NCBI GenBank assembly: GCA_005503065.1
Contig: SCOE01000041.1
Span: 1-47,474, forward strand
Direction of reading: 5' to 3'
Source of the DNA: Comamonadaceae bacterium ALPHA2B
Lineage (GTDB): Bacteria; Pseudomonadota; Gammaproteobacteria; Burkholderiales; Burkholderiaceae_C
DNA: 47,474 nucleotides
A program made the translations under genes and the position numbers. The notes below the pieces were generated by a model that worked only from the letters and a program-made list of their open reading frames with translations, was not told the origin of the DNA and made no database searches. Below are positions 1 through 45,108 of this stretch, one piece after another. The stretch's first letter is position 1; every line of letters begins with the position of its first letter.

Positions 1-3000
1 CGCGCACGCTGCGCGGCATCACCGACCTGACGCTGGCCGCACCGCTCAAGCGCGGCCTGGTCGTCGCCCCCGACGCGCGCAGCCACGAGACGCGTCTCAC
101 GCTGCTGCTGCGCAGCCTGAACACGCTGCGCTACGCCTCGCTGGAGATCGACCCGGCCTGCGCGATCCCGGACATGATCGACCGCGTGCGCGCGCTGCAG
201 TCCTTCCGCCTGGCGCTGACGGACGGCCCCGACGGCAGCCGCCAGCTGCTGCTGGCCGTGAGCTTCGACGGTGGCTGGGAGCCGTACATGCGCCGCGTGT
301 GGCGCGACCTCGGGCCGCTGCTGGACGTGATCTTCTGCAATTGCGAGGGCTACCTGCTGGCGCGCACGCACGCCTACGCGGACTACGCGCGCTGGGTGCG
401 CAGCGCGCAGCGCAACACCGAGTTCTTCTACACCGCCAGCCCGGTCACGGTGAACGACCTGCACTGGCTGCGCGAGCAGCAGCGCACACCGGCACCGCCG
501 CCGCCCCGTGCGAGCGACGCCACGCTGGCCGCGCAGGCGCTGCCCGGCCTCACGGCCCTGTACCGCCTCACCGAGCTGTACCCGTCCGGTACGGCCGACG
601 GCGACTGCCTGCTGCATGCCGCGCACCACCTGCTGCTGCCGCTGTGGGAACGGATGAGCGACACGGCATCGCCACTGCCGCCCTCGGCCATGCCGTGCCG
701 CACGCCGACCGAGGAGGCGGCCGTCGCCTGGTTCACGACGCGGGTGAAGCCATCGCCGGCGGCGCCGGTCGCCACGTGCCCCGCGCACCGCCACTGGCCC
801 CCGCCGGATGCGCAGGCCGGCATCGTCAAGGCCCTGCCGGCCACGCCGACGCACGGGGCGCTGCTGCTGATCGAGTGCGACGACGCGAACGCCATCGCCC
901 GACTGGTGCGGCAACTCGACCCGGCCACGCTCGGGGCGCGCGCCGCGCAGGCGCACGCGGGGCCCTGGCGCAACCTGTTCTTCACGCTGGCCGGCCTGAA
1001 GAAGGCCCGCGTGCCCGACGGCCTGCTCGCCTGCCTGCCGGCGGAATTCCTCGAAGGCATGGAGGCGCGCGCGGCGGTGCTGGGCGACCTGGAGGCGGAC
1101 CACCCGCAGCACTGGACGCTGCCCGAACGCAACTGGCCGCTGGACGGCGCAGGCGCGACACCGGCCCGCGTGGCGCTGGCGAGCGTGCACGTGGTGGTTC
1201 AGATCCTGGTGGCCGATACGGCAGCCCCGGGCTGGCAAGCACTGAACACCGGGCACCCGGCCTGCACGCCGATCAAGGACTTCGAGGAACAAATGCCGCC
1301 GGGTGCACGCATCCTGTCGGTACAGCCGCTGCACCGGAACATCGATGCGCACGGCCGGGCGCGCGAACACTTCGGCTTCGCCGACGGCCTGAGCAATCCC
1401 GTGCATCCGGACGACCGGCCGGCGGGCAGCCCCGCGGCCGGTGCGTGGGACCGCTGGGCGCTCGGCGACTACCTGCTCGGCTACGGCAACAGCCATGACG
1501 ACCCGCCGCTGCAGGGCCGCTTCTGGACCGACAGCACCTTCCTCGTCGTGCGCAAGCTGCGGCAGGACGTGGACGCGCTGCAGGCGATGGTCGGCGGGCC
1601 GCCCGCGCACTCGGAACTGGCGGCCCTGATGGTGGGAAGGCACCAGGACGGCCGCAACCTGGTCGACGGCACGCCGGACAACGCCTTCGACTACGCGAAC
1701 GACCCAGGCGGCGCGCAATGCCCACTGCATGCGCATGTGCGCCGCGCCAATCCACGCGGCCTTCGGCCGGACCTGCAGGTGCTGCCGCGCATCCTGCGGC
1801 GCGGCATGTCCTACGGTCCGCCGCACACGGCCCAGACGGCGCAGGACGAGCGCGGCGTCGTCTTCATGGCCTACAACGCGTCCATCGCCGAGCAGTTCGA
1901 GCTGATCCAGTCCTGGCTGTCGGGCGGCAACAGCGGCGGCGAAGGCACCTACTCGGGCCAGCGCGACCCGATCTTCGCCCGCCCGCGCCCGGGCGATCGC
2001 GACAGCTTCGTCTTCGGGCCGCACCCGCAACCGGCCCCCCTGCCGCTACCCGCCGCCGGCCCGCGGCCGGTGGCGCTGCAATGGGGCCTGTACCTCTTCG
2101 TGCCTTCGGTGCCGGCGCTGGAGGACATCGCGCGCTTCGCCGCCGAGGCCGGCTGCCCGGTGGCCGCGTCGACCGCGCCCGACCCGGCGGCGGCCGAGCG
2201 CGCCGCCGAGGCCAAGAAGGGCGCCATCGTCATCGCGAAGCTGAAGGCGGCGGAGTCGGCACTCGGCCTGGCCGCCGCGCGCGAGCAGTGGAAGCTCGTG
2301 CTCGAAGACCTGGGCGCGCGGCAGAACGGCACCAGCCAGTGGCTCTGGACGGCCGTTCGCGACCTGCACGGCGGGGTGCTGCGCACACCTTATGGCGTGC
2401 TGGTTGGCAGCCGCGACCGGGTGATGGAGGTGTTCGGCGACGACCGCAGCTTCTCGGCCACCGGCTACTGCCCGCGCATGGCTTCTTCCTTCGGGGCCAT
2501 CTACCTCGGGATGGACCAGGGGCCCGAGTACCGCGCGCTGTCGACCGTGCCCAACGAGGCGATCATGGCCGTGACCCGGCGCGACGCCTTCGATGCGGCC
2601 TTCGCCCACACGAGGACCGTGCTCGACGGCTGGCGGGCAGACGCCGGTGCGGCCGGTTTCTCGTTCGACGTGAAGGACCTCGTCGATGCGGTGCTGGCCG
2701 CGATCTGCACGCAGTTCTTCGGCCTGCCGGAAGGGCCCGGCAGCTCCATGCGCATCGGCGGCTGGCAGGCGCGCATCGGCCAGGCCGACGCCGACCAGCC
2801 GAGCTGCCCGGGGCATTTCGGGGCGCCGTCGCGCTACATGTTCCAGCCCAATCCGGGAGAGGAAGCCGTCCAGCAGGGCCAGGACCACGGCCGGGCGCTG
2901 AAGGACTATGTGGAGGCACGTCTGCACGCAGGCGGCCCCGATCTGCAGTCGACCAACGACAGCGTCATCGGCGCGAAGCTGCGCGGCATCCCCAAGACGC

Positions 3001-3512
3001 AGTACGCCAGCACGCTCATCGGCATCATGATGGGCTTCCTGCCCACGGTGGACGGCACCCTGCGCAGCGCGCTCTACGAGTGGGTGGCCGACAGCTCGCT
3101 GTGGTCCCTGCAGCTGGCGTGGGCGGCGCACGACGGCGCAGGCGCTTCGGCGGCTTTGGCGACGGCAGGGGCGGTGATCGAGCCCGCCCTGCGGCGGACG
3201 ATGCAGCTGCGCCCGGTGCCGGAACTGGTCTGGCGCACCGCGACGGCGCGGCGGATGCTGGGCGCCGTGGAGCTCGCGCCGGGCGAGCGCATCGTGGTGG
3301 GCATCGTCTCGGCCATGCAGCAGAACCTGCAGGAGGGCAGTCCCGAACTGTGGCCCGTGTTCGGCGGCCGGAGGGCCGGCGAGCAGCATCCCACGCATGC
3401 CTGTCCCGGCTATGAGATGGCGATGGGCGTGATGCTCGGCGTGCTGGCCGGGCTGCTGGGCGCCGAGTTGCGGCCGTCGCTGTCGCCGACAGTGCTTCGG
3501 CTGATGGCTTGA
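1..3512 (+). CDS. DyP-type peroxidase / cytochrome P450 fusion protein (5' partial)
   Basis: The frame is open from base 3, so the true start lies to the left; an internal ATG at 174 is probably not the start. About 1,170 residues are visible. An N-terminal region of roughly 250 residues is followed by a DyP peroxidase domain (about 800-2120) with the GFADG motif holding the catalytic Asp (1374-1388), a CPLHAHVRRANPRG block holding the proximal haem His (near 1734) and an RRGMSYG block with the expected distal Arg. After a linker, a full-length P450-like domain (about 2250-3500) ends in FGG...HACPGYEMAMG, whose Cys at 3402 is the expected haem thiolate. The frame is continuous, so this is a real fusion and not two genes. 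DyP domains use peroxide to oxidise dyes and aromatics; P450s oxygenate organic substrates. Substrate and coupling are unknown. No secretion signal can be judged. The K-helix ExxR is not canonical (E-P-A-L-R). Confidence 0.85.
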   Translation, partial: RTLRGITDLTLAAPLKRGLVVAPDARSHETRLTLLLRSLNTLRYASLEIDPACAIPDMIDRVRALQSFRLALTDGPDGSRQLLLAVSFDGGWEPYMRRVWRDLGPLLDVIFCNCEGYLLARTHAYADYARWVRSAQRNTEFFYTASPVTVNDLHWLREQQRTPAPPPPRASDATLAAQALPGLTALYRLTELYPSGTADGDCLLHAAHHLLLPLWERMSDTASPLPPSAMPCRTPTEEAAVAWFTTRVKPSPAAPVATCPAHRHWPPPDAQAGIVKALPATPTHGALLLIECDDANAIARLVRQLDPATLGARAAQAHAGPWRNLFFTLAGLKKARVPDGLLACLPAEFLEGMEARAAVLGDLEADHPQHWTLPERNWPLDGAGATPARVALASVHVVVQILVADTAAPGWQALNTGHPACTPIKDFEEQMPPGARILSVQPLHRNIDAHGRAREHFGFADGLSNPVHPDDRPAGSPAAGAWDRWALGDYLLGYGNSHDDPPLQGRFWTDSTFLVVRKLRQDVDALQAMVGGPPAHSELAALMVGRHQDGRNLVDGTPDNAFDYANDPGGAQCPLHAHVRRANPRGLRPDLQVLPRILRRGMSYGPPHTAQTAQDERGVVFMAYNASIAEQFELIQSWLSGGNSGGEGTYSGQRDPIFARPRPGDRDSFVFGPHPQPAPLPLPAAGPRPVALQWGLYLFVPSVPALEDIARFAAEAGCPVAASTAPDPAAAERAAEAKKGAIVIAKLKAAESALGLAAAREQWKLVLEDLGARQNGTSQWLWTAVRDLHGGVLRTPYGVLVGSRDRVMEVFGDDRSFSATGYCPRMASSFGAIYLGMDQGPEYRALSTVPNEAIMAVTRRDAFDAAFAHTRTVLDGWRADAGAAGFSFDVKDLVDAVLAAICTQFFGLPEGPGSSMRIGGWQARIGQADADQPSCPGHFGAPSRYMFQPNPGEEAVQQGQDHGRALKDYVEARLHAGGPDLQSTNDSVIGAKLRGIPKTQYASTLIGIMMGFLPTVDGTLRSALYEWVADSSLWSLQLAWAAHDGAGASAALATAGAVIEPALRRTMQLRPVPELVWRTATARRMLGAVELAPGERIVVGIVSAMQQNLQEGSPELWPVFGGRRAGEQHPTHACPGYEMAMGVMLGVLAGLLGAELRPSLSPTVLRLMA

Positions 3513-3630: not shown

Positions 3631-6600
3631 TCAGGTGACGGCCCGCAGCGCGGCCGCCTGGGCGAGGTGCCAGTCCATGCGCAGGCGCTCGAAGCCTTCC
3701 GAGGCGGTGTCGAGATGGCGCTGCGCTTCGCCGCAGTCGTCGCGGCGCAACGCCAGCCGCGCGCGCAGCAGGTGGTTGGCCGCCACCTCGTGCGGCGACT
3801 GGCGCAGCGCCGCCGCCCGGTCGGCCAGGTGCAGGTGGCGCGCCAGTGCGCCGGCGTCGCCGGTCTCGGCGGCCAGCCCGGCCAGCGCCCGCCCGGCCAT
3901 GGCGGCGCCCAGCCAGTCGCGCTGGCGGGCCCGGTGCAGCACGCGCGTGGCGGCGGCCCGCGCCTCGGCCGTGTGGCCGCGCGCGGCCATCGCTTCGCAG
4001 ACCCAGCCATGGTTGAGCGAGGCGAACAGGCCCTTGTCGTGCGAATCGAGCCAGGTCGCCGATTCCTGCAGCGCCTCCAGCGCGGCCGGCTGCGGATCGA
4101 GCATCCAGCGCGCATAGGCGGCCAGGCCGTGGCTCATGGCGAACAGGTACAGGCTCTTGACGCGCTCGCCCACCCGGTGGGCGGCCTGCGCGTCGTCCAG
4201 CGCGGCCTGCCAGCGGCCCTGCCAGAGATTGACGCCCGCGCGCCAGCACAGCACCGAGCCCTCGACCTCGTGGCCGCGCCCCGGCAGCGCGGCCAGGGCC
4301 TCGTCGAAGCTGGCGTGCGCATCCTCGAAGCGCCCCAGGTCGCCCAGCACGCTGGCGCGGCAGGCCATGGCATAGGCGATGGCCGGCAGCGGCGCGCGGC
4401 TGGCGGGACGGCGCTCGCGCACGGCGCGCGCCATCTCGTCCAGCAGCTCGACGGCGCGGCCGTAGTCGGCCGCTGCGGCCGCCGCCTGGCCCAGCGTGGT
4501 GCGGGCCTGGACGATGAGCGGCATGTCCTGCACGCGGGTGGCATGGTCCAGCGCCTCCTCGCAATGCAGCAGGGCGTCCTTGGACTCGCCCAGGGCGTAG
4601 TGCAGGTAGGCGAGCCAGTACTGGGCGTAGGCCTGGCCCGTCGCGTCCCCGTGCGCGCGTGCCTTGTCCACCGCGCGGCGCAGCAGGGCCTTCTCGTCGC
4701 GCGAAGGGTCGAACACGGTGGCCAGCCCCAGCCGCCGCACCACCGAACGCCAGAGCTGGTAGCGCTCGGGCGTCGAGGGCAGGCGGTCGAGCATCTCGAG
4801 CGCGGCGCGGTACTGCGTCTTGGCGCGGTCGATGGACGAGGCCGACATCGCCTTGTCGCCGGCCATCTCAGCGTAGCGTGCGGCGGCCGCGAAGTCGGCC
4901 GCGCCCGCGTGGTGGTAGGCCAGCGGCTCGCACTGCTCGATCTCGGTCGCGCCATCGCGCGCGCGCAGCAGCCGCGCCACGCGCCCGTGCATGTCGCGGC
5001 GCTGCTGCAGGCCGAGGGTGCCGTACACCACGTCGCGCGTGATGCCGTGCTTGAAGCGCAGGGTGCCGGGCTGCTCGCCGGCGAACAGCAGGTCCTGCGC
5101 CGCCATGGTGGTGACCAGCGGATGCTGTGCATCGCAGCCGGTGAGCTCCTGCAGCAGCCAGGCCGGGACCACGTTGCCGATGACGGCCGCCGCCCCGAGC
5201 ACCGCGCCCTGCTGCGGCGCCAGGCGCGCCACGCGCGATTCGATCAGCGATTCCAGCCAGGCCGGCCCGCCGCGCAGCGCATCCAGGCCCGCGCCGGTGT
5301 CCGCCGCCAGGTGGCACAACTCCTCGAGGAAGAGCGCGTTGCCGCCGGAATGCTCGCGGATGCTGTTCACCACGAAGGGGTCGGCGTCGGGCAGCAGGGT
5401 GCGGATCGTCGTGTCGGCCTCGGCCTGCGACAGCGGCCCGAGCGCCAGCACGTCGGCCGCCGCCAGCTGTGCATCGCCCAACTCCAGCGGGCGCGTGGCC
5501 AGCAGCGCCAGCAGCGGCAGGTCGGGCTGGGCGGCCAGCGCGTAGACGACCTGGCGCGTCGCGTCGTCGGCCCACTGCCAGTCGTCGATGAAGAGCAGTT
5601 GCGGGGCCTCGCGTGCCAGTGCGCCGACCAGCCCGCCCAGCACCCGCAGCATCTGCTGGGCCTGGGCTGCGGCGGCGGCCGGCGTGTCGGCGGGCTGCCC
5701 GGGCAGCGCCAGTTCGGGATGGCGCTCGCGCAGGTCCGCAGGCAGCGCGGCGATCACACCGCCCAGCAGGGCCGGCGCGGCGAGGCCGGCGCCGGCCATC
5801 CCCAGGCGGGCGCGCAGCATCTGCAGAAAGGGCTGCAGGGGCTCGGCGCTGAGCTCGGCCTCGCAGTAGCCGCGCCACAGCGCGAAGCCGCTCGCCGAGG
5901 CGCGGCGCAGGAATTCCTCGGCCAGGCGCGTCTTGCCGACCCCCGCGGGGGCGGAAACCACCATCAGCCGGGTGCGCCCGCCACGCGCCGTGCCCAGTGC
6001 CTCCTGCAGGGCGGCGAGTTCGGCATCGCGCCCGACGAAGTCGACCAGGCCGCGGCGCGTCTGGGCCTCGAAGCGCGTGCGCAGCGCCGTGCGCGCGAGG
6101 ATGCGGTGGACTGGCAGCGGTTCGTCGCGGCCCTTGAGCGCGAGCCGGCGGGCTTCGGTCTGGAAGAGGTAGCGCGCCGGGCCCAGCGTCTCCTCGCTGA
6201 CGAGGATCTCGTCGCGCTCGGCGACGTCGCTCAAATGCTTGGCGATGCCGGGGGCGGCGCCGAAGAGCTCGAAGCGCCCGGCGATGCCGTGGGTGCCCTC
6301 GCGCACCAGCACCAGGCCCGCATGGATGCCGCTGTGCACGTCGAGCACGATGTCCTCGCGGTAGGCATGGCGTGCGCGCAGCGCGCGCACGCGCTCGTGC
6401 ACCTCCAGCGCCGCGCGGGTGGCGCGCAGCCCGTGGTCCTCGCCCGCCTCGGGATGGCCGAACAGGGCCTGGAGCCCGTCGCCCTGGTACTGGTTGATGG
6501 TGCCTCCGCTGCGCTGGACCACCTCGTCGAACGCGCGGCGCACGTCGTCCTGCAGGGACGCGAACACCTCCGCCTCCAGCAGGCCCGACAGCCGCGTGGA

Positions 6601-6687
6601 ATCCGACAGGTCGGTGAACAGCACCGTCATGTGCCGGCGCACATCGCCCGACACGCCCTGCACCATGCCCTCGACATCTCTTGCCAT
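3631..6687 (-). CDS. Class III cyclase-like domain / AAA ATPase / TPR regulatory protein
   Basis: A protein of 1,018 residues. The start at 6687 was chosen over an in-frame ATG at 6741 because GGGAGA lies just before it. Residues about 20-200 are a class III nucleotide cyclase domain (FTDLSDST with D26; QGDG with D70). Residues about 215-550 are an AAA/STAND-type ATPase with Walker A APAGVGKT (246-253) and Walker B LLFIDD. The C-terminal half is Ala-rich helical repeat of TPR type. Proteins of this build are large cytoplasmic signalling proteins. The metal-binding Asps are present, but the adenine-specifying and transition-state residues are not: the usual GDxVNxAxRL reads GAAPGIAKHL, with Gly147 at the Asn place and His151 at the Arg place. 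It may therefore be a pseudo-cyclase. The gene lies 82 bases after a Crp/Fnr-type regulator on the same strand and is probably linked to it. Confidence 0.88.
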   Translation of the reverse strand: MARDVEGMVQGVSGDVRRHMTVLFTDLSDSTRLSGLLEAEVFASLQDDVRRAFDEVVQRSGGTINQYQGDGLQALFGHPEAGEDHGLRATRAALEVHERVRALRARHAYREDIVLDVHSGIHAGLVLVREGTHGIAGRFELFGAAPGIAKHLSDVAERDEILVSEETLGPARYLFQTEARRLALKGRDEPLPVHRILARTALRTRFEAQTRRGLVDFVGRDAELAALQEALGTARGGRTRLMVVSAPAGVGKTRLAEEFLRRASASGFALWRGYCEAELSAEPLQPFLQMLRARLGMAGAGLAAPALLGGVIAALPADLRERHPELALPGQPADTPAAAAAQAQQMLRVLGGLVGALAREAPQLLFIDDWQWADDATRQVVYALAAQPDLPLLALLATRPLELGDAQLAAADVLALGPLSQAEADTTIRTLLPDADPFVVNSIREHSGGNALFLEELCHLAADTGAGLDALRGGPAWLESLIESRVARLAPQQGAVLGAAAVIGNVVPAWLLQELTGCDAQHPLVTTMAAQDLLFAGEQPGTLRFKHGITRDVVYGTLGLQQRRDMHGRVARLLRARDGATEIEQCEPLAYHHAGAADFAAAARYAEMAGDKAMSASSIDRAKTQYRAALEMLDRLPSTPERYQLWRSVVRRLGLATVFDPSRDEKALLRRAVDKARAHGDATGQAYAQYWLAYLHYALGESKDALLHCEEALDHATRVQDMPLIVQARTTLGQAAAAAADYGRAVELLDEMARAVRERRPASRAPLPAIAYAMACRASVLGDLGRFEDAHASFDEALAALPGRGHEVEGSVLCWRAGVNLWQGRWQAALDDAQAAHRVGERVKSLYLFAMSHGLAAYARWMLDPQPAALEALQESATWLDSHDKGLFASLNHGWVCEAMAARGHTAEARAAATRVLHRARQRDWLGAAMAGRALAGLAAETGDAGALARHLHLADRAAALRQSPHEVAANHLLRARLALRRDDCGEAQRHLDTASEGFERLRMDWHLAQAAALRAVT

Positions 6688-6690
6688 GAA

Positions 6691-6710
6691 TCTCCCACCT
6701 ATTTGGGAGA
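6691..6710. promoter_or_regulatory. Inverted repeat overlapping the ribosome binding site of the cyclase-like gene
   Basis: TCTCCCACCTATTTGGGAGA has perfect 7-base arms (TCTCCCA/TGGGAGA) and a 6-base spacer. One arm, read on the minus strand, is the GGGAGA Shine-Dalgarno sequence of the gene starting at 6687. It could be a protein operator or an mRNA hairpin that hides the ribosome binding site. The function is inferred; only the symmetry is seen. Confidence 0.5.
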
Positions 6711-6769
6711 CATTGTGTCCTGCGCCGGGAAAGCCCCGCAACGCGCGCGCCGAAAGCCCGAGCGCCGCC

Positions 6770-7426
6770 TCACCAGCGCGCGGGCAGGGGGCGCAGGATC
6801 GTCAGGCGGCGCTCGCGCACGGCCAGGTAGCCGCCGGTCTCGAGGTCCTTGAGCAGGCGGCTGACCATCTCGCGCGAGCAGCCGATCTCCGAGGCCAGCG
6901 CCTGGTGCGTGAGCCGCTCGGCGATGGCCTGGGCGCCGTCCGGCCCGGCCGGCGCCGCCCGTTCCTCCAGCAACCGGCGCAGGCGGCTGTAGACGTCGAG
7001 CAGCGCCATGCTGCGCGCGCTCTCGGTCGCCAGGCGCGCGCGGCGGATCAGGCGCTCGATCAGGCCACGGGTGAATTCCGGGTCTTCGGCGATGTGGCGC
7101 AGCGCGCTCTCGCGCGTGACCACCACGCACACGGTGGGCTCCACGGCTTCCACGCTGGCCGATCGCGTGCCGCCGTCCAGCGACATCTCGCCCACGTACT
7201 CGCCGGGGCCGTGGTGGCTCAGCGTCACCTCCCGTCCACGGGAATCGGACACGAAGGCGCGCAGCCGGCCCGACAGCACGATGAAGATCGTGTCGCCGCG
7301 CTCGCCTTCGTGGATCAGCAGGGCGCGGGCGCGGAAGCGCCGCTGCACGCCGCGCGCCGCCAGCCGCGCCACGTCGGCCGGCAGGCCATCGTTGGATTCG
7401 GCAGGGGCAGCGGACCGCGGCGGCAT
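6770..7426 (-). CDS. Crp/Fnr family transcriptional regulator
   Basis: The protein has 218 residues, normal for the family. Residues about 20-130 form a cyclic-nucleotide-binding beta-roll (LLIHEGERGDTIFIVLSGRLRAF...GEYVGEMSLDGGTRSASVEA), followed by a dimerisation helix and a C-terminal winged helix-turn-helix (LTHQALASEIGCSREMVSRLLKDLETGGYL), the Crp-type DNA recognition unit. No Cys cluster is seen for an Fe-S cluster, so an Fnr-type oxygen sensor is unlikely; the ligand is unknown. There is no Shine-Dalgarno sequence, and a TATAGT -10-like hexamer ends 6 bases before the ATG, suggesting a leaderless transcript. The next gene downstream is the cyclase-like protein, whose 5' region carries an inverted repeat. 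Confidence 0.92.
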   Translation of the reverse strand: MPPRSAAPAESNDGLPADVARLAARGVQRRFRARALLIHEGERGDTIFIVLSGRLRAFVSDSRGREVTLSHHGPGEYVGEMSLDGGTRSASVEAVEPTVCVVVTRESALRHIAEDPEFTRGLIERLIRRARLATESARSMALLDVYSRLRRLLEERAAPAGPDGAQAIAERLTHQALASEIGCSREMVSRLLKDLETGGYLAVRERRLTILRPLPARW

Positions 7427-7428
7427 GC

Positions 7429-7445
7429 GCGGACTATAGGTCCGC
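7429..7445. promoter_or_regulatory. Palindrome overlapping a -10-like box before the Crp/Fnr gene
   Basis: GCGGACTATAGGTCCGC is a perfect 6-5-6 inverted repeat two bases upstream of the ATG at 7426. Read on the minus strand it contains TATAGT (7438-7433), placed so that transcription would begin at or next to the start codon. This fits an autoregulatory operator over a leaderless promoter. It does not match the TGTGA-N6-TCACA Crp consensus. No good -35 element was found. Confidence 0.45.
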
Positions 7446-7510
7446 CCCCGGCCGGCCGCCGGGCCGCCCGCCTCCGGGGCGACGCCTGGGCGACGCGCCT
7501 GGCCGGCCGT

Positions 7511-8182
7511 CTATTCGTTCGCGGCCACGATGCGCAGGGTGGAGACGATCTGCGGCATGCGGGTGACGCGGTGGACGATGGCGCGAATGCTGGCGGACCC
7601 GGTCTTCACGCGCATGTTCTTGATGTGCGTGCGCACCGTGGACATGCGGATGCCCTGGCTCTCGGCGATCTCCTCGGCCGCCTTGCCGGCGCACAGCTGG
7701 CCGAGCACCGACTGCTCGGTCGGCGTCAGCCCGCGCGCGCGGGCGTACATCTGCAGGGTGAGGGGCTGCACGCCCGGCCGGCGGCTGCAGATGACCAGCA
7801 CGGCATCGGTGGCCGCACCGGAGCGGCCGGTGGCCAACGGCACGAAGGCCAGCGACAGCGACTCTTCGGGATGCTCCAGCTCGACCATGCTGCGGCAGTC
7901 GCGCTCGGCGTCGTGCAGCGCCAGCCGGATGCGCGCGTGCGCCGTGCCATTGCTGGCGCACAGCACGCCGCCCTGGCCCTCGCGCAGCACCCGCTGGCTG
8001 GCCAGCTCGCGACGAGCCGGGTGGTTGGCATGCAGGATCCGGCCGCCCAGGTCCAGCAGCAGCAGCCCGTGCTCGATCTCGTCGAGCGCGGCGGCGAACA
8101 GGGCGGGCCAGGCGGCCTCGAGCGGGGGGAGGGCGGCGGACGCCGCGTCTACGCCGGCGGCGTCGGTCTGGGGGATGGTCAT
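7511..8182 (-). CDS. LuxR-type helix-turn-helix transcriptional regulator
   Basis: The protein has 223 residues. The start at 8182 is preferred over an ATG at 8200 because AGGAAGGAG lies about 5 bases before it. Residues about 40-150 look like a PAS-type sensor module (EIEHGLLLLDLGGRILHANHPARREL), and residues about 155-215 are a LuxR/GerE helix-turn-helix (LTPTEQSVLGQLCAGKAAEEIAES with VRTHIKNMRVKTG). There is no response-regulator receiver domain and no acyl-homoserine-lactone domain, so it probably senses a small molecule or a redox cue. The gene sits 84 bases upstream of the Crp/Fnr gene on the same strand. Its own 5' region contains short repeats that could be its operator. The target genes cannot be deduced. 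Confidence 0.88.
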   Translation of the reverse strand: MTIPQTDAAGVDAASAALPPLEAAWPALFAAALDEIEHGLLLLDLGGRILHANHPARRELASQRVLREGQGGVLCASNGTAHARIRLALHDAERDCRSMVELEHPEESLSLAFVPLATGRSGAATDAVLVICSRRPGVQPLTLQMYARARGLTPTEQSVLGQLCAGKAAEEIAESQGIRMSTVRTHIKNMRVKTGSASIRAIVHRVTRMPQIVSTLRIVAANE

Positions 8183-8195
8183 CGGGCACTCCTTC

Positions 8196-8281
8196 CTCAT
8201 TTGTGATGAGGTCAGAGTGTGAAAAAACGCACGCCTCCCAAAAGGTGAGTATTACCCGTCCGTTTGTGATCCATTCACCTT
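8196..8281. promoter_or_regulatory. Repeat-rich upstream region of the LuxR-type gene
   Basis: Three symmetric elements are seen: CTCATTTGTGATGAG (8196-8210, 5-5-5 inverted repeat), the octamer TTTGTGAT twice (8200-8207 and 8263-8270, 63 bases apart, close to six helical turns), and distant arms AAGGTGA (8242-8248) and TCACCTT (8275-8281). The region between the LuxR-type gene and purC is otherwise empty. A role as an operator array is inferred. Confidence 0.3.
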
Positions 8282-41222: not shown

Positions 41223-44200
41223 TCAGGCGACTGCGCGCTGCGCACCCTGAGGCGCGCGCCAGCGCGCCAGCAGGTCGTTCCAGCGGATGCGCGTGGCCGC
41301 GAGGTTGCGTTCCTTCACGTGGCCGTAGCCGCGGATCTGCTCCGGCAGGGCCGCGATCTCCACCGCCAGCGCATGGTTCCCCGGGGTCAGGCCGCGCAGC
41401 AGTTCCTCGACCGTGGCGCGGTACTCGCCGATCAGCGCACGTTCCGTCTTGCGTTCCTCGGTGCGGCCGAAGGGGTCGAGCACCGTGCCGCGCAGCCCCT
41501 TGAGCTTCGCCAGCAGCTTGAAGCCGGTGAGCATCGACGGGCCGTACTTCTTCTTGATCAGCTCGCCCTTGGCGTTCTTCTTCGCCGTCGCCGGCGGCGC
41601 CAGGTGGTAGTTGAGCGTGAAGTCGCCCTCGAACATGCCGTTGACCCTGGCCAGGAAGGCCGTGTCGCTGTGCAGGCGCGCGACCTCGTACTCGTCCTTG
41701 TAGGCCATCAGCTTGAAGAGGTAGCGCGCCACCGTCTCGGCCAGCGTGGTCTTGCCCAGCGGCGCCTCGGCCTGCTGCACCTGCTGCACGAAGGCGCGGT
41801 ACTGCTCGGCGTAGGCGGCGTTCTGGTAGGCGGTGAGGAACTCCACGCGGCGCGCCACCAGCGATTCGACGGTGTCGCGCTTCTTGAACTCGATCACCTG
41901 GCCGGGGTTCAGCCGCTTGGCCATCTCGCCCGGCCGGTGCGCGGCCTGGCGACCCCATTCGAAGGCCGCCTTGTTGGCGTCGATCGCCACGCCGTTGAGC
42001 TCGATGGCCCGCATCAGCGATTCGTGGCCCAGCGGGATCCAGCCCTTCTGCCACGCGTAGCCCAGGATCATCGGGTTGACGTAGATCGTGTCGCCCATCA
42101 GCTGCGTGGCGGCCGCGTCGGCGTCGAAGCTGCCCAGCCCCGCCTCGCCGACGGCCTTGCCGATCTGCACCGCGCAGGCGTCCTGCGGGTTCTGCCAGTT
42201 GGCGTTCTTCACGAAGCTGGCCGTGGGCGCGCTGTGGCTGTTAAGGGCCACGTGCGTGCGGCCCTCGCGCATGCGCGCCAGCGTTTCGTAGTTGACGGTG
42301 ACGATCGGGTCGCAGGCCAGGATAAGGTCGGCCGCGGCCGTCCCCACGCGGGTGGTGCGGATGTCGTTCTGCGAATCGCCGATGAGCACGTGGCTCCAGG
42401 TCGCGCCGCCCTTCTGCGCCAGGCCGGCCGCGTCCTGCGTGACGATGCCCTTGCCCTCGATGTGCGCGGCCACCCCCAGCAACTGGCCGATGGTGATGAC
42501 GCCGGTGCCGCCGACGCCGGCCACCACGATGCCCCACACCTGGCCGCCGTGCAGCGAAGGCAGCGCCGGCTCGGGCAGTTCGCCCAGCTCGGCCGGCGTC
42601 GCGGCCTTGCTCGCCTTGGCCTTCTTCTTGAGCTGCCCGCCCTCGACGGTGATGAAGCTCGGGCAGAAGCCCTTCACGCAGCTCACGTCCTTGTTGCAGG
42701 TGCTCTGGTTGATGGTGCGCTTGCGGCCGAACTCGGTCTCCAGCGGCTCGACGCTCATGCAGTTGCTCTTGACGCTGCAATCGCCGCAGCCTTCGCACAC
42801 CAGCTCGTTGATGACCACGCGCACGGCCGGATCGACGGCCTTGCCGCGCTTGCGGCGGCGGCGCTTCTCGGTGGCGCAGGTCTGGTCGTAGATGATGGCC
42901 GTGGTGCCGGCGATCTCGCGGAACTCGCGCTGGATCTCGTCGAGCTGGTCGCGATGGCGCACCTGCACCTTCTCGCCGCCATAGGTGCCCGGGATCTGCA
43001 CGCCCTCGTACTTCTGCGGCTCGTCGGTGACGATCACGACCTTCCTCGCGCCCTCGGCATGCAGGCTCTCGGCGATCTGCAGCACCGAGTGGCCCTCGGG
43101 CCGCTCGCCCACCTGCTGGCCGCCGGTCATGGCCACGGCGTCGTTGTAGAGGATCTTGTAGGTGATGTTCACGCCCGCCGCGATGCTCTGGCGGATGGCC
43201 AGCAGCCCGCTGTGGAAGTAGGTGCCGTCGCCCAGGTTGGCGAAGATGTGCTGCTCGTTGGAGAACGGCGCCTGGCCCACCCACGGCACGCCCTCGCCGC
43301 CCATCTGCGTGAAGCCGTAGGTGGCGCGGTCCATCCAGTTGGCCATGTAGTGGCAGCCGATGCCGGCCATCGCGCGCGAGCCCTCGGGCACCACCGTGCT
43401 GGTGTTGTGCGGGCAGCCGGAGCAGAACCATGGCACCCGGTCGGCGCCCTGCACGCCATCGGCCTGCAGCACCTGCATCGAGCGTTCCTTGGCCTCCAGG
43501 ACGGCCATCTGCGCCTCGACGCGCGCCACCATGTCGGCGCCGCCCGATTCGAGCACGCCGGTCTTCTTCAGCCGCTGCACCAGCGCCTTGGCGATCAGTG
43601 CCGGGTTGAGGTCGGCGTTGGCGCGCAGCAGGGTGTTGGCCGTCGGGTTGGGCATGGACCATTCGCCGCCCGAGTGGTCGTTGCCCAGCTCGTTGAACTT
43701 GCCCAGCACGTTGGGGCGCACGTCGGGCCGCCAGTTGTAGAGCTCTTCCTTGAGCTGGTACTCGATGACCTGGCGCTTTTCCTCGACCACCAGGATCTCC
43801 TGCAGGCCGGTGGCGAAGTCGCGCGTGAGTTGCGCCTCCAGCGGCCACACCACGTTGACCTTGTGCAGGCGAATGCCCAGCTGCCGGCAGGCCGCGTCGT
43901 CCAGGCCCAGGTCGATCAGCGCCTGGCGCGTGTCGTTGAAGGCCTTGCCGCTGGCCATGATGCCGTAGCGGTCGTTGGGCCCCTCGATCACGTTGTGGTT
44001 GAGCCGGTTGGCGCGGATGTAGGCCAGCGCCGCATACCACTTGTAGTGCATCAGGCGCGCCTCCTGCTCCAGGGGCGCGTCGGGCCAGCGGATGTGCAGG
44101 CCGCCGGGCGGCATCTCGAAATCGGTCGGGGTGACGATGTCGACGCGCTCGGGGTCGATCATGGCCGTGGCACTGGATTCGACGATCTCCTGGATCGTCT

Positions 44201-44834
44201 TCATGCCCGACCACACGCCCGAGAAGCGGCTCATCGCGAAGGCGTGGATGCCCAGGTCCAGGATCTCCTGCACGTTGGTGGGGAAGAACACCGGCGTGCC
44301 GCAGGCCTTGAAGATGTGGTCGCTCTGGTGCGCCGCCGTGCTGCTCTTGGAGATGTGGTCGTCGCCGGCCACCGCGATCACCCCGCCCCAGGGCGTGGTG
44401 CCGGCCATGTTGGCGTGCTTGAAGACGTCGGAGCAGCGGTCCACGCCGGGGCCCTTGCCGTACCAGATGCCGAAGACGCCGTCGAACTTCTGCGTCTCCT
44501 TCGGCGAGAAGCCCAGCATCTGCGTGCCCCACAGCGCCGTGGCCGCGAGCTCCTCGTTCACCCCGGGCTGGAAGACGATGTTCTGCGCCTTGAGGTACTT
44601 GCTCGCCTTCCACAGCGCCTGGTCGTAGCCGCCCAGCGGCGAGCCGCGGTAGCCGCTGACGAAGCCGGCCGTGTTCTTGCCCTGCTGCGCATCGCGCAGG
44701 CGCTGCAGCATCGGCAGCTTGACCAGGGCCTGCACGCCGCTCATGAAGGCGCGGCCGTAATCCAGGGAGTACTTGTCGTCGAGCGTGACCGTCTCGAGGG
44801 CCTTGCGGATGTGCTCGGGCAGGGGGGCGTTCAT
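41223..44834 (-). CDS. Fused indolepyruvate ferredoxin oxidoreductase family protein
   Basis: A 1,203-residue enzyme joining the alpha and beta/gamma parts of 2-oxoacid:ferredoxin oxidoreductases. In order: an N-terminal pyrimidine-binding domain (GFVSGYRGSPLGGYD), the thiamine-diphosphate block PWFCSGCPHN (Cys471), an Fe-S region CEGCGDC (Cys680, 683, 686) with a further Cys-rich stretch (SNC, STCNKDVSCVKGFCPSF), and a C-terminal gamma domain (VVAGVGGTGVITIGQLLG). Such enzymes convert aryl-pyruvates from Trp, Phe and Tyr to aryl-acetyl-CoA with ferredoxin. Fused forms are usual in aerobic proteobacteria. It is divergent from an Lrp/AsnC gene, its likely regulator. GGGAGG before the ATG is the ribosome binding site and lies inside an inverted repeat. 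Confidence 0.92.
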   Translation of the reverse strand: MNAPLPEHIRKALETVTLDDKYSLDYGRAFMSGVQALVKLPMLQRLRDAQQGKNTAGFVSGYRGSPLGGYDQALWKASKYLKAQNIVFQPGVNEELAATALWGTQMLGFSPKETQKFDGVFGIWYGKGPGVDRCSDVFKHANMAGTTPWGGVIAVAGDDHISKSSTAAHQSDHIFKACGTPVFFPTNVQEILDLGIHAFAMSRFSGVWSGMKTIQEIVESSATAMIDPERVDIVTPTDFEMPPGGLHIRWPDAPLEQEARLMHYKWYAALAYIRANRLNHNVIEGPNDRYGIMASGKAFNDTRQALIDLGLDDAACRQLGIRLHKVNVVWPLEAQLTRDFATGLQEILVVEEKRQVIEYQLKEELYNWRPDVRPNVLGKFNELGNDHSGGEWSMPNPTANTLLRANADLNPALIAKALVQRLKKTGVLESGGADMVARVEAQMAVLEAKERSMQVLQADGVQGADRVPWFCSGCPHNTSTVVPEGSRAMAGIGCHYMANWMDRATYGFTQMGGEGVPWVGQAPFSNEQHIFANLGDGTYFHSGLLAIRQSIAAGVNITYKILYNDAVAMTGGQQVGERPEGHSVLQIAESLHAEGARKVVIVTDEPQKYEGVQIPGTYGGEKVQVRHRDQLDEIQREFREIAGTTAIIYDQTCATEKRRRRKRGKAVDPAVRVVINELVCEGCGDCSVKSNCMSVEPLETEFGRKRTINQSTCNKDVSCVKGFCPSFITVEGGQLKKKAKASKAATPAELGELPEPALPSLHGGQVWGIVVAGVGGTGVITIGQLLGVAAHIEGKGIVTQDAAGLAQKGGATWSHVLIGDSQNDIRTTRVGTAAADLILACDPIVTVNYETLARMREGRTHVALNSHSAPTASFVKNANWQNPQDACAVQIGKAVGEAGLGSFDADAAATQLMGDTIYVNPMILGYAWQKGWIPLGHESLMRAIELNGVAIDANKAAFEWGRQAAHRPGEMAKRLNPGQVIEFKKRDTVESLVARRVEFLTAYQNAAYAEQYRAFVQQVQQAEAPLGKTTLAETVARYLFKLMAYKDEYEVARLHSDTAFLARVNGMFEGDFTLNYHLAPPATAKKNAKGELIKKKYGPSMLTGFKLLAKLKGLRGTVLDPFGRTEERKTERALIGEYRATVEELLRGLTPGNHALAVEIAALPEQIRGYGHVKERNLAATRIRWNDLLARWRAPQGAQRAVA

Positions 44835-44837
44835 GCC

Positions 44838-44919
44838 ATGCCTCCCGACGAGCCGCCTCTAGGGAGGCATGCGCCCCCTCGGGGGGCAGCGATTGCACGC
44901 AGTGAAGAGCGTGGGGGCG
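44838..44919. repeat. REP-like GC-rich inverted repeats at the 5' end of the ferredoxin oxidoreductase gene
   Basis: ATGCCTCCC (44838-44846) and GGGAGGCAT (44862-44870) are perfect 9-base arms around a 15-base spacer. GCCCCC-TCG-GGGGGC (44873-44887) follows, and a further GGGGGCG (44913-44919) can pair with 44872-44878. Strings of the type CCCCCTCGGGGGGCAG...GTGGGGGCG are, from memory, scattered repeats in Comamonadaceae genomes. The first arm holds the ribosome binding site GGGAGG of the gene starting at 44834. Confidence 0.6.
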
Positions 44920-44990
44920 TCATGTTTGTCTCCGTGTGGCTATGCCTCGTGGGCGTGGCGTGGTCGGTTGGCTCAGGCGGTCGGGTGAAC

Positions 44991-45025
44991 ACACTTGCCC
45001 CGCGGCCATGATGCTCGCAAAGTGT
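44991..45025. promoter_or_regulatory. Imperfect inverted repeat upstream of the Lrp gene
   Basis: ACACTTGC (44991-44998) and GCAAAGTGT (45017-45025) pair with one unpaired base, spaced by 18 bases, in the 274-base gap between the divergent Lrp and oxidoreductase genes. It could be a regulator site; the symmetry is weak. Confidence 0.25.
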
Positions 45026-45108
45026 ATGCCCGGCGCGCCGACAGGTGTTTGCTTTCTATGCCTCAAACTCGGCCCTTCAAGAAAGCTTCTTTCGCAAGGG
45101 TGGAAGAT

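What the first reader, a model, noticed from the sequence alone, without database searches (positions are those of the whole stretch)
1..3512. One-chain fusion of a DyP-type peroxidase and a cytochrome P450
A single open frame carries the DyP catalytic Asp (GFADG), proximal His and distal Arg, and then a P450 domain with its haem Cys. Two haem enzymes that both handle peroxide chemistry in one polypeptide could pass a substrate, or share peroxide, between sites. I know of no characterised protein with this architecture. The N-terminal region may add further fold units.
Basis: partly seen in the sequence, partly recalled or inferred. Interest (0 to 1): 0.8.

Follow-up and report, generated by a model that had tools for sequence, protein, structure and literature searches.

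The report
Two-haem peroxidase–P450 fusion enzyme family
An uncharacterised bacterial protein joins a peroxidase and a strongly altered cytochrome P450 in one chain, and relatives in which the same parts are separate neighbouring genes, or fused in the opposite order, indicate that the two haem enzymes work together, perhaps on lipids.

The parts
3..3512 (+). Fused ORF: N domain - DyP - P450-like domain (1169 residues present; about 9 N-terminal residues lie beyond the contig end)
3..776 (+). N-terminal domain (residues 1-258): ferredoxin-like alpha/beta part (about 1-147) plus helices; no Pfam family
786..2144 (+). DyP-type peroxidase domain (residues 262-714)
1383..1385 (+). DyP distal Asp D461 of GFADG
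   Evidence: 78 of 78; role recalled
1734..1736 (+). DyP proximal haem-ligand His H578
   Evidence: 78 of 78; role recalled
1797..1799 (+). DyP distal Arg R599
   Evidence: 78 of 78; R600 is also 78 of 78; assignment by spacing to the His, recalled
2223..3509 (+). P450-fold domain (about residues 741-1169)
3042..3047 (+). I-helix P1014-T1015: Pro in place of the acid of the acid-alcohol pair, Thr kept
   Evidence: P 78/78, T 75/78; 50/52 and 45/52 in the wider set, acid in 22 of 23 ordinary P450s
3195..3206 (+). K-helix R1065-Q1068 in the aligned position of ExxR (motif lost)
   Evidence: E in 3 of 52 and R in 9 of 52 at the two columns, against E and R in 23 of 23 ordinary P450s
3402..3404 (+). 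Haem-thiolate Cys C1134 in HPTHACPG
   Evidence: 78 of 78, 52 of 52
3631..6741 (-). Convergent neighbour: class III cyclase - AAA_16 (STAND-like) - TPR protein
   Evidence: Pfam; next to the fusion in 59 of 74 loci; only full-length match in this genome
6770..7426 (-). Crp-family regulator next to the cyclase
   Evidence: Pfam; relatives near some loci

Best explanation
A one-chain, two-haem enzyme built from a DyP peroxidase and a divergent P450-fold domain, related to a multi-gene DyP-P450 system. SHOWN: both folds (by prediction and comparison), intact DyP catalytic residues, invariant P450 Cys, loss of the P450 I-helix acid and (in this lineage) ExxR, and existence of the same parts as an ordered operon and as reverse-order fusions. 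INFERRED: (1) DyP uses H2O2 to form compound I and oxidises the substrate (0.8). (2) The P450 half is not a classical reductase-driven monooxygenase but works by a peroxide route, taking H2O2 or an oxidised or hydroperoxide intermediate handed over from the DyP half (0.6). (3) The substrate is an acyl or lipid-derived molecule released by the patatin or SGNH hydrolase encoded beside or within the protein (0.4; lowered from 0.45 on rechecking, because no such hydrolase was matched at the split and permuted loci searched). (4) The product, or flux through the enzyme, is reported to the neighbouring cyclase-AAA-TPR protein and from there to cyclic-nucleotide signalling (0.4).
For: Architecture. 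Catalytic columns. P450 ancestry: hhalign 97.6%, E 2.9e-12 over 331 columns, four control pairings under 1%. The family P450 profile finds a true P450 (PF00067 above cut-off) at E 1.6e-9, and that gene lies 15 bp behind a DyP gene. Six of six split operons have the order N-like, N-like, DyP, P450 on one strand. N domain against the two small operon genes: hhalign 85% and 91%. Reverse-order fusions P450-N-DyP of 1471 and 1411 aa in two families. Eight DyP-linked P450s rank 1-8 of 36 scored with the family profile. The tree puts fused, split and permuted P450s (plus 3 others) on one side of a 100/97 branch against 25 others. Acid to Pro in 8 of 9 DyP-linked P450s, against E/D in 22 of 23 ordinary ones. 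CYP152 peroxygenases also lack the acid-alcohol pair (PMC5377825, two passages read). Acyl-hydrolases: patatin-like gene directly upstream in 10 of 80 loci and at the end of contig C75 in this genome; SGNH domain fused in 12 of 80 plus one probable, and as an adjacent gene in 2. Cyclase neighbour: 59 of 74; a cyclase-TPR gene also beside one reverse-order fusion.
Against: No biochemistry; haem binding and haem-haem distance not measured. Acyl-hydrolases were found in only 25 of 80 loci, and patatin and SGNH queries matched nothing at the split or permuted loci searched (L128, L144-L148, L179, L180). One DyP-linked P450 (L145) keeps the Asp-Thr pair, and one P450 with the Pro (L136) has no DyP in the 1.5 kb held. 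The six split operons gave no cyclase match in the 9-20 kb fetched, though that search was not very sensitive. Reverse-order fusion L144/L186 has a gene with a different N-terminal part upstream. Loss of ExxR could mean a degraded rather than repurposed P450. P450BioI, the top P450 match, is tied with many P450s and says nothing about substrate.
Confidence: 0.42

Rival explanations
1. The partnership oxidises an aromatic, pigment or polyketide-like compound (catabolic or biosynthetic), not a lipid; the hydrolases act on some other ester.
For: DyPs are known mainly for bulky dyes and aromatics (recalled). 55 of 80 loci showed no adjacent or fused patatin or SGNH partner, nor did the split and permuted loci searched. 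One relative lies on a plasmid whose name suggests isoprene (L063, record title).
Against: Two unrelated acyl-hydrolase superfamilies recur at the same place, next to or inside the protein. The neighbour genes that I scanned with Pfam showed no conserved aromatic-degradation set (only part of all neighbours).
Confidence: 0.27
2. The protein is a haem-based peroxide or redox sensor whose output is the neighbouring cyclase protein; its own turnover is incidental.
For: The cyclase-AAA-TPR gene is adjacent in 59 of 74 loci and is the only full-length match in this genome. A cyclase-TPR gene also lies beside one reverse-order fusion. P450 motifs are degraded.
Against: DyP catalytic residues are intact in 78 of 78. 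No cyclase was matched at the split operons. Acyl-hydrolase fusions suggest a substrate. The window's own cyclase lacks the usual Asn and Arg.
Confidence: 0.15
3. The DyP half only removes H2O2 to protect an otherwise ordinary, reductase-fed P450 monooxygenase.
For: Thr of the acid-alcohol pair is kept in 75 of 78; one DyP-linked P450 keeps Asp-Thr.
Against: The I-helix acid is Pro in 78 of 78 here and in 8 of 9 DyP-linked P450s. No ferredoxin or reductase gene appeared among the neighbours that I scanned (only part of all neighbours).
Confidence: 0.1
4. The P450-fold half of the window-type family no longer binds a working haem and is a structural or substrate-holding module.
For: ExxR lost in most members, Phe and Gly of the Cys loop not kept; Pfam misses it in 52 of 52.
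Against: Cys and HxC kept in 52 of 52. Mean identity to the window is as high for the P450 half (0.49) as for the DyP half (0.46). P450 blocks of the model have mostly high pLDDT.
Confidence: 0.08
5. Frameshift or assembly chimera.
For: The ORF touches a contig end.
Against: Colinear relatives in many genomes and metagenomes; the same genome has separate ordinary DyPs elsewhere.
Confidence: 0.01

Closest known systems
DyP peroxidases (best solved match: Deinococcus radiodurans DyP, PDB 8re2; then fungal DyPs)
   Different: The solved ones are stand-alone; here the domain sits between an N domain and a P450-fold domain
Fungal linoleate diol synthase family (DOX-CYP fusions)
   Same: One-chain peroxidase-type domain plus C-terminal P450; HxC in the Cys pocket (PMC13049297, abstract and passages read); work without a reductase (recalled)
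   Different: Fungal; the peroxidase half belongs to the cyclooxygenase superfamily, not DyP; their chemistry is known, here it is not
CYP152 fatty-acid peroxygenases (e.g. OleT)
   Same: Acid-alcohol pair replaced, peroxide-driven (PMC5377825 passages)
   Different: CYP152 has Arg-Pro; here Pro is in the acid position with Thr kept and no Arg; CYP152 enzymes stand alone
Unfused DyP-P450 operons and P450-N-DyP fusions found here (L128/L185, L146, L181-L184; L144, L179)
   Same: Same three kinds of part; their P450s are the closest relatives among those compared
   Different: Separate genes or reverse order; their P450s keep ExxR; also uncharacterised as far as searched

Membership tests
DyP-type peroxidase superfamily | DyP fold | tested here: met
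DyP-type peroxidase superfamily | GxxDG Asp, proximal His, distal Arg | tested here: met
   78 of 78 for each
DyP-type peroxidase superfamily | Curated sequence models | tested here: inconclusive
   PF20628 32.3 bits against cut-off 20; TIGR01413 90.9 against 100.5
DyP-type peroxidase superfamily | Haem binding and peroxidase activity | not testable with these tools
   needs protein
Cytochrome P450 superfamily (canonical) | P450 fold | tested here: met
Cytochrome P450 superfamily (canonical) | Haem-thiolate Cys with HxC | tested here: met
   52 of 52
Cytochrome P450 superfamily (canonical) | Full Cys motif FxxGx[RH]xCxG | tested here: not met
   Phe and Gly positions before HxC not kept in the window or the members shown
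Cytochrome P450 superfamily (canonical) | K-helix ExxR | tested here: not met
   Family E 3 of 52, R 9 of 52; ordinary P450s 23 of 23; DyP-linked 9 of 9. Hence 'P450-fold', not canonical P450
Cytochrome P450 superfamily (canonical) | Pfam PF00067 | tested here: not met
   0 of 52 at E 0.1
CYP152 peroxygenases | Arg-Pro in place of the acid-alcohol pair | tested here: not met
   Leu-Pro-Thr in the window
Fungal DOX-CYP (linoleate diol synthase) family | Cyclooxygenase-type peroxidase domain | tested here: not met
   The peroxidase half is DyP
Fungal DOX-CYP (linoleate diol synthase) family | P450 hydroperoxide isomerase activity | not testable with these tools
   needs assay

The most novel reading that the evidence does not exclude
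A bacterial, independently evolved counterpart of the fungal DOX-CYP oxylipin synthases: a phospholipase-type partner releases an acyl chain, the DyP half turns it into an oxidised (perhaps hydroperoxy) intermediate, the DyP-coupled P450 rearranges it without O2 or a reductase, and the product is a signal read by the adjacent cyclase-AAA-TPR protein. The DyP-P450 pairing would then be a new class of two-haem enzyme with its own signalling axis.
Probability: 0.16. Interest if true: 0.92.

Novelty: new variant of a known kind. Interest (0 to 1): 0.76.

Why it matters
The visible database names for these proteins are Dyp-type peroxidase, EfeB or hypothetical protein and do not mention the P450 half. 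Two haem enzymes joined in both orders, and also kept as an ordered operon, is strong evidence that they cooperate. This offers a natural partner for DyP peroxidases, whose physiological substrates are largely unknown (recalled), and a setting for a P450 branch that has lost the usual oxygen-activation acid. If the acyl and cyclase links hold, it opens a bacterial lipid-oxidation signalling pathway to direct test, and provides a possible peroxide-driven P450 with a built-in peroxidase.

Tried and rejected
Frameshift, separate genes or chimera as the explanation of the ORF: rejected. Searching the P450 half alone gave 46 proteins, many on short metagenome contigs. P0125 and P0168 lie on contigs of the same length (104,843 bases) and read like two pieces of one gene broken by a frameshift. 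P0135, P0136 and P0141 begin with Met in the linker and may be true separate P450 genes; I had no context to check.

CYP152-like Arg-Pro as the I-helix reading: hhalign puts Pro on the Thr position, but the bridging sequences (IGAVPTTS against IGAVETTS) put it on the acid, so I use the latter.

Conserved neighbours such as RecQ, UvrA, DctM and S9 peptidase were taken as local synteny of related genomes and not used.

My first neighbour count used a codon-composition filter and found the cyclase in 40 of 80 loci. The unfiltered count replaced it: of 80 loci 6 have no downstream sequence; of the other 74, 59 adjacent, 9 more within about 7 kb (3 of them upstream), 6 not found, of which L031 and L053 have under 1.4 kb downstream. 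L010 and L011 come from the same strain and were counted separately. In one search the row L147 turned out to be another P450 of that contig (not L135, which was not scored), L110 gave no listed score, and L179 was not yet in the set. Seven of the 30 P450 loci lacked my Cys pattern and were dropped, leaving 23. Four of the 52 rows of A4 are short proteins from searches (P0135, P0136, P0143, P0156). L186's upstream gene first looked like a second cyclase neighbour; one search shows a different N-terminal part, so only L179 is counted. The cyclase motif scan missed even L179's cyclase, so it is no evidence of absence; only the tblastn part is used.

Literature: (open-access PMC only) listed no DyP-P450 fusion, judged from titles and abstract openings; one search looked up CYP152 and (P450nor) returned nothing. 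Passages were read of PMC5377825, PMC13049297 (with its abstract) and PMC4420034; no other paper was opened. DyP loci were fetched for a DyP tree but the tree was not made, as most are of short unrelated types. The haem-haem distance was not computed because no coordinates were available.
Full report
OBSERVATION. The window begins at base 1 of contig C35 of a 6.0-Mb, 91-contig assembly. A frame of 1169 residues runs from base 3 to 3512 on the + strand, open at its 5' end. The 98%-identical P0001 is 1178 aa, so about 9 residues are missing. Third-position GC is high in all eleven blocks tested. Pfam sees only Dyp_perox_C (32.3 bits, cut-off 20). Nothing credible is found for the last 453 residues in Pfam, NCBIfam or the PDB by single sequence.

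THE FUSION IS A FAMILY. A search of 5.8 billion proteins gave 567 matches among the 7,995 candidates scored. Of the 120 listed, 116 are 1122-1287 aa long. In GTDB species genomes 104 relatives were confirmed and 80 kept, mostly Burkholderiales and Bradyrhizobium, with some Sphingomonas and other proteobacteria. In 76 of 80, DyP through P450 Cys lies in one ORF; L012, L070, L077 and L083 run off a contig end; L057 has a break in the N-terminal part only. In the window's own family 13 of 100 genomes (own included) have a strong match, all in frames of 1169 aa or more, and 3 more match weakly (23 bits or less), probably ordinary P450s. Across the phylum 2 of 299 (own included) have a strong match.

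CATALYTIC COLUMNS. In 78 sequences D461, H578, R599 and C1134 are invariant. For the P450 half I aligned 52 family members, nine P450s physically linked to DyP and 23 ordinary P450s. The Cys is kept in all. The I-helix acid is Glu/Asp in 22 of 23 ordinary P450s but Pro in 50 of 52 family members and 8 of 9 DyP-linked ones; the following Thr is kept in 45 of 52, 9 of 9 and 23 of 23. ExxR is intact in all ordinary and DyP-linked P450s, but at the aligned columns only 3 of 52 family members have Glu and 9 of 52 Arg. Pfam P450 matches 0 of 52. So the window's half is P450-derived but not a canonical P450.

UNFUSED AND PERMUTED RELATIVES. The family P450 profile found, in another family, a gene that Pfam calls P450. 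The gene 15 bp upstream is a DyP. The full operon is a 228-aa gene, a 342-aa gene, DyP and P450. Both small genes resemble the fusion's N domain (hhalign 91% and 85%, single-comparison E 1.3e-6 and 6.7e-6). The same order on one strand is present in six of six such operons, in two families. Two further genomes of different families encode single chains in the reverse order, P450 - N-like - DyP, 1471 and 1411 aa. A third has a P450 gene followed by an N-DyP frame. Scored with the family P450 profile, eight DyP-linked P450s rank 1-8 of 36 (30.6-53.3 bits); the other 28 reach at most 25.2. A 56-row tree puts fused, split and permuted P450s and three unlinked ones on one side of a 100/97 branch from 25 others; the fused ones form a 100/100 group on a long branch. 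The operon sample was reached through the family's own profile, so the ranking is not an unbiased survey, and the long branch is a caution.

NEIGHBOURS. Convergent with the fusion lies a 1036-aa cyclase - AAA_16 - TPR gene. It is within 500 bp downstream in 59 of 74 loci with downstream sequence (57 convergent, 2 codirectional, 21 with touching or overlapping ends), within about 7 kb in 9 more, and not found in 6. It is the only full-length match in this genome; two partial ones match its cyclase part at 28-30%. In 66 aligned sequences the two metal Asp and the P-loop Lys are invariant; the transition-state Asn is kept in 57 and Arg in 47, and the window's copy has Gly and His there (roles recalled). 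A cyclase-TPR gene also sits 109 bp upstream of one of the two reverse-order fusions. In this genome a patatin-like gene, cut by the end of contig C75, is the homologue of the gene about 20 bp upstream of the fusion in L009. A patatin-like gene is directly upstream in 10 of 80 loci (by BLAST; Pfam-confirmed in the three of them scanned), and GxSxG and DGG motifs are present in all six copies checked. An SGNH hydrolase-like domain is fused at the C-terminus in 12 of 80 (Pfam over cut-off in 3 of 4 scanned), with one more probable and cut by its contig (L022), and lies as an adjacent gene in two, of which L069 is below Pfam's cut-off and L057 was not scanned. Altogether 25 of 80 loci. Patatin and SGNH queries matched nothing at the split and permuted loci searched.

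HOW IT LIKELY WORKS. Known chemistry of DyPs (recalled) and the intact residues suggest that H2O2 drives the DyP half. Removal of the I-helix acid argues against classical O2 activation; CYP152 peroxygenases also lack the acid-alcohol pair (PMC5377825 passages), though with Arg-Pro. Fungal DOX-CYP fusions (PMC13049297 abstract and passages) show that a peroxidase-type domain and a P450 can act in sequence in one chain. With two unrelated acyl-hydrolases recurring at the locus, an acyl substrate is the most economical guess for this lineage, and the cyclase neighbour suggests a signalling role. These last steps are inference.

NOVELTY. Seven searches of open-access papers listed no such fusion; subscription journals are not covered and the listed papers were not opened except three, in passages. 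Visible database names do not mention P450 for the full-length proteins; 7 of 46 P450-half hits are named cytochrome P450. I rate it a new variant of a known kind (peroxidase-P450 fusion), built from a peroxidase superfamily that I know in no such fusion.

Noticed in passing
L128:6036-10828 (-), L146, L181-L185: Four-gene operon N-like (228 aa), N-like (342 aa), DyP, P450, six of six in the same order; no description found in the searches made
   Followed up: yes
L144:4976-9391 and L179:2602-6837: Single chains of 1471 and 1411 aa in the order P450 - hydrophobic segments - N-like - DyP
   Followed up: partly
window 3631-6741 (-): Cyclase-AAA-TPR protein whose cyclase domain, unlike most relatives, lacks the usual Asn and Arg
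   Followed up: partly
window 6770-8200 (-): Crp-family and LuxR-type regulators next to the cyclase gene
   Followed up: partly
G000 contig C46 (L188:3311-4789, -) and C36 (L150): Ordinary stand-alone DyP genes in the same genome
   Followed up: partly
G000 contig C43:21104-22453: A P450 inside a 1109-aa frame, possibly a reductase-fused P450
   Followed up: no
window 41223-44834 (-): 1203-aa protein with POR and DUF6537 domains
   Followed up: no
P0135, P0136, P0141: 470-473 aa proteins that look like separate genes for only the P450-like half
   Followed up: no
plasmid NZ_CP102385.1 (Sphingopyxis sp. DBS4), 42742-45048: A plasmid-borne relative covering residues 449-1138 at 30% identity, annotated Dyp-type peroxidase
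   Followed up: no
L017:8409-9317: Fatty acid hydroxylase-type gene upstream of a fusion; relatives near L052 and L064
   Followed up: no
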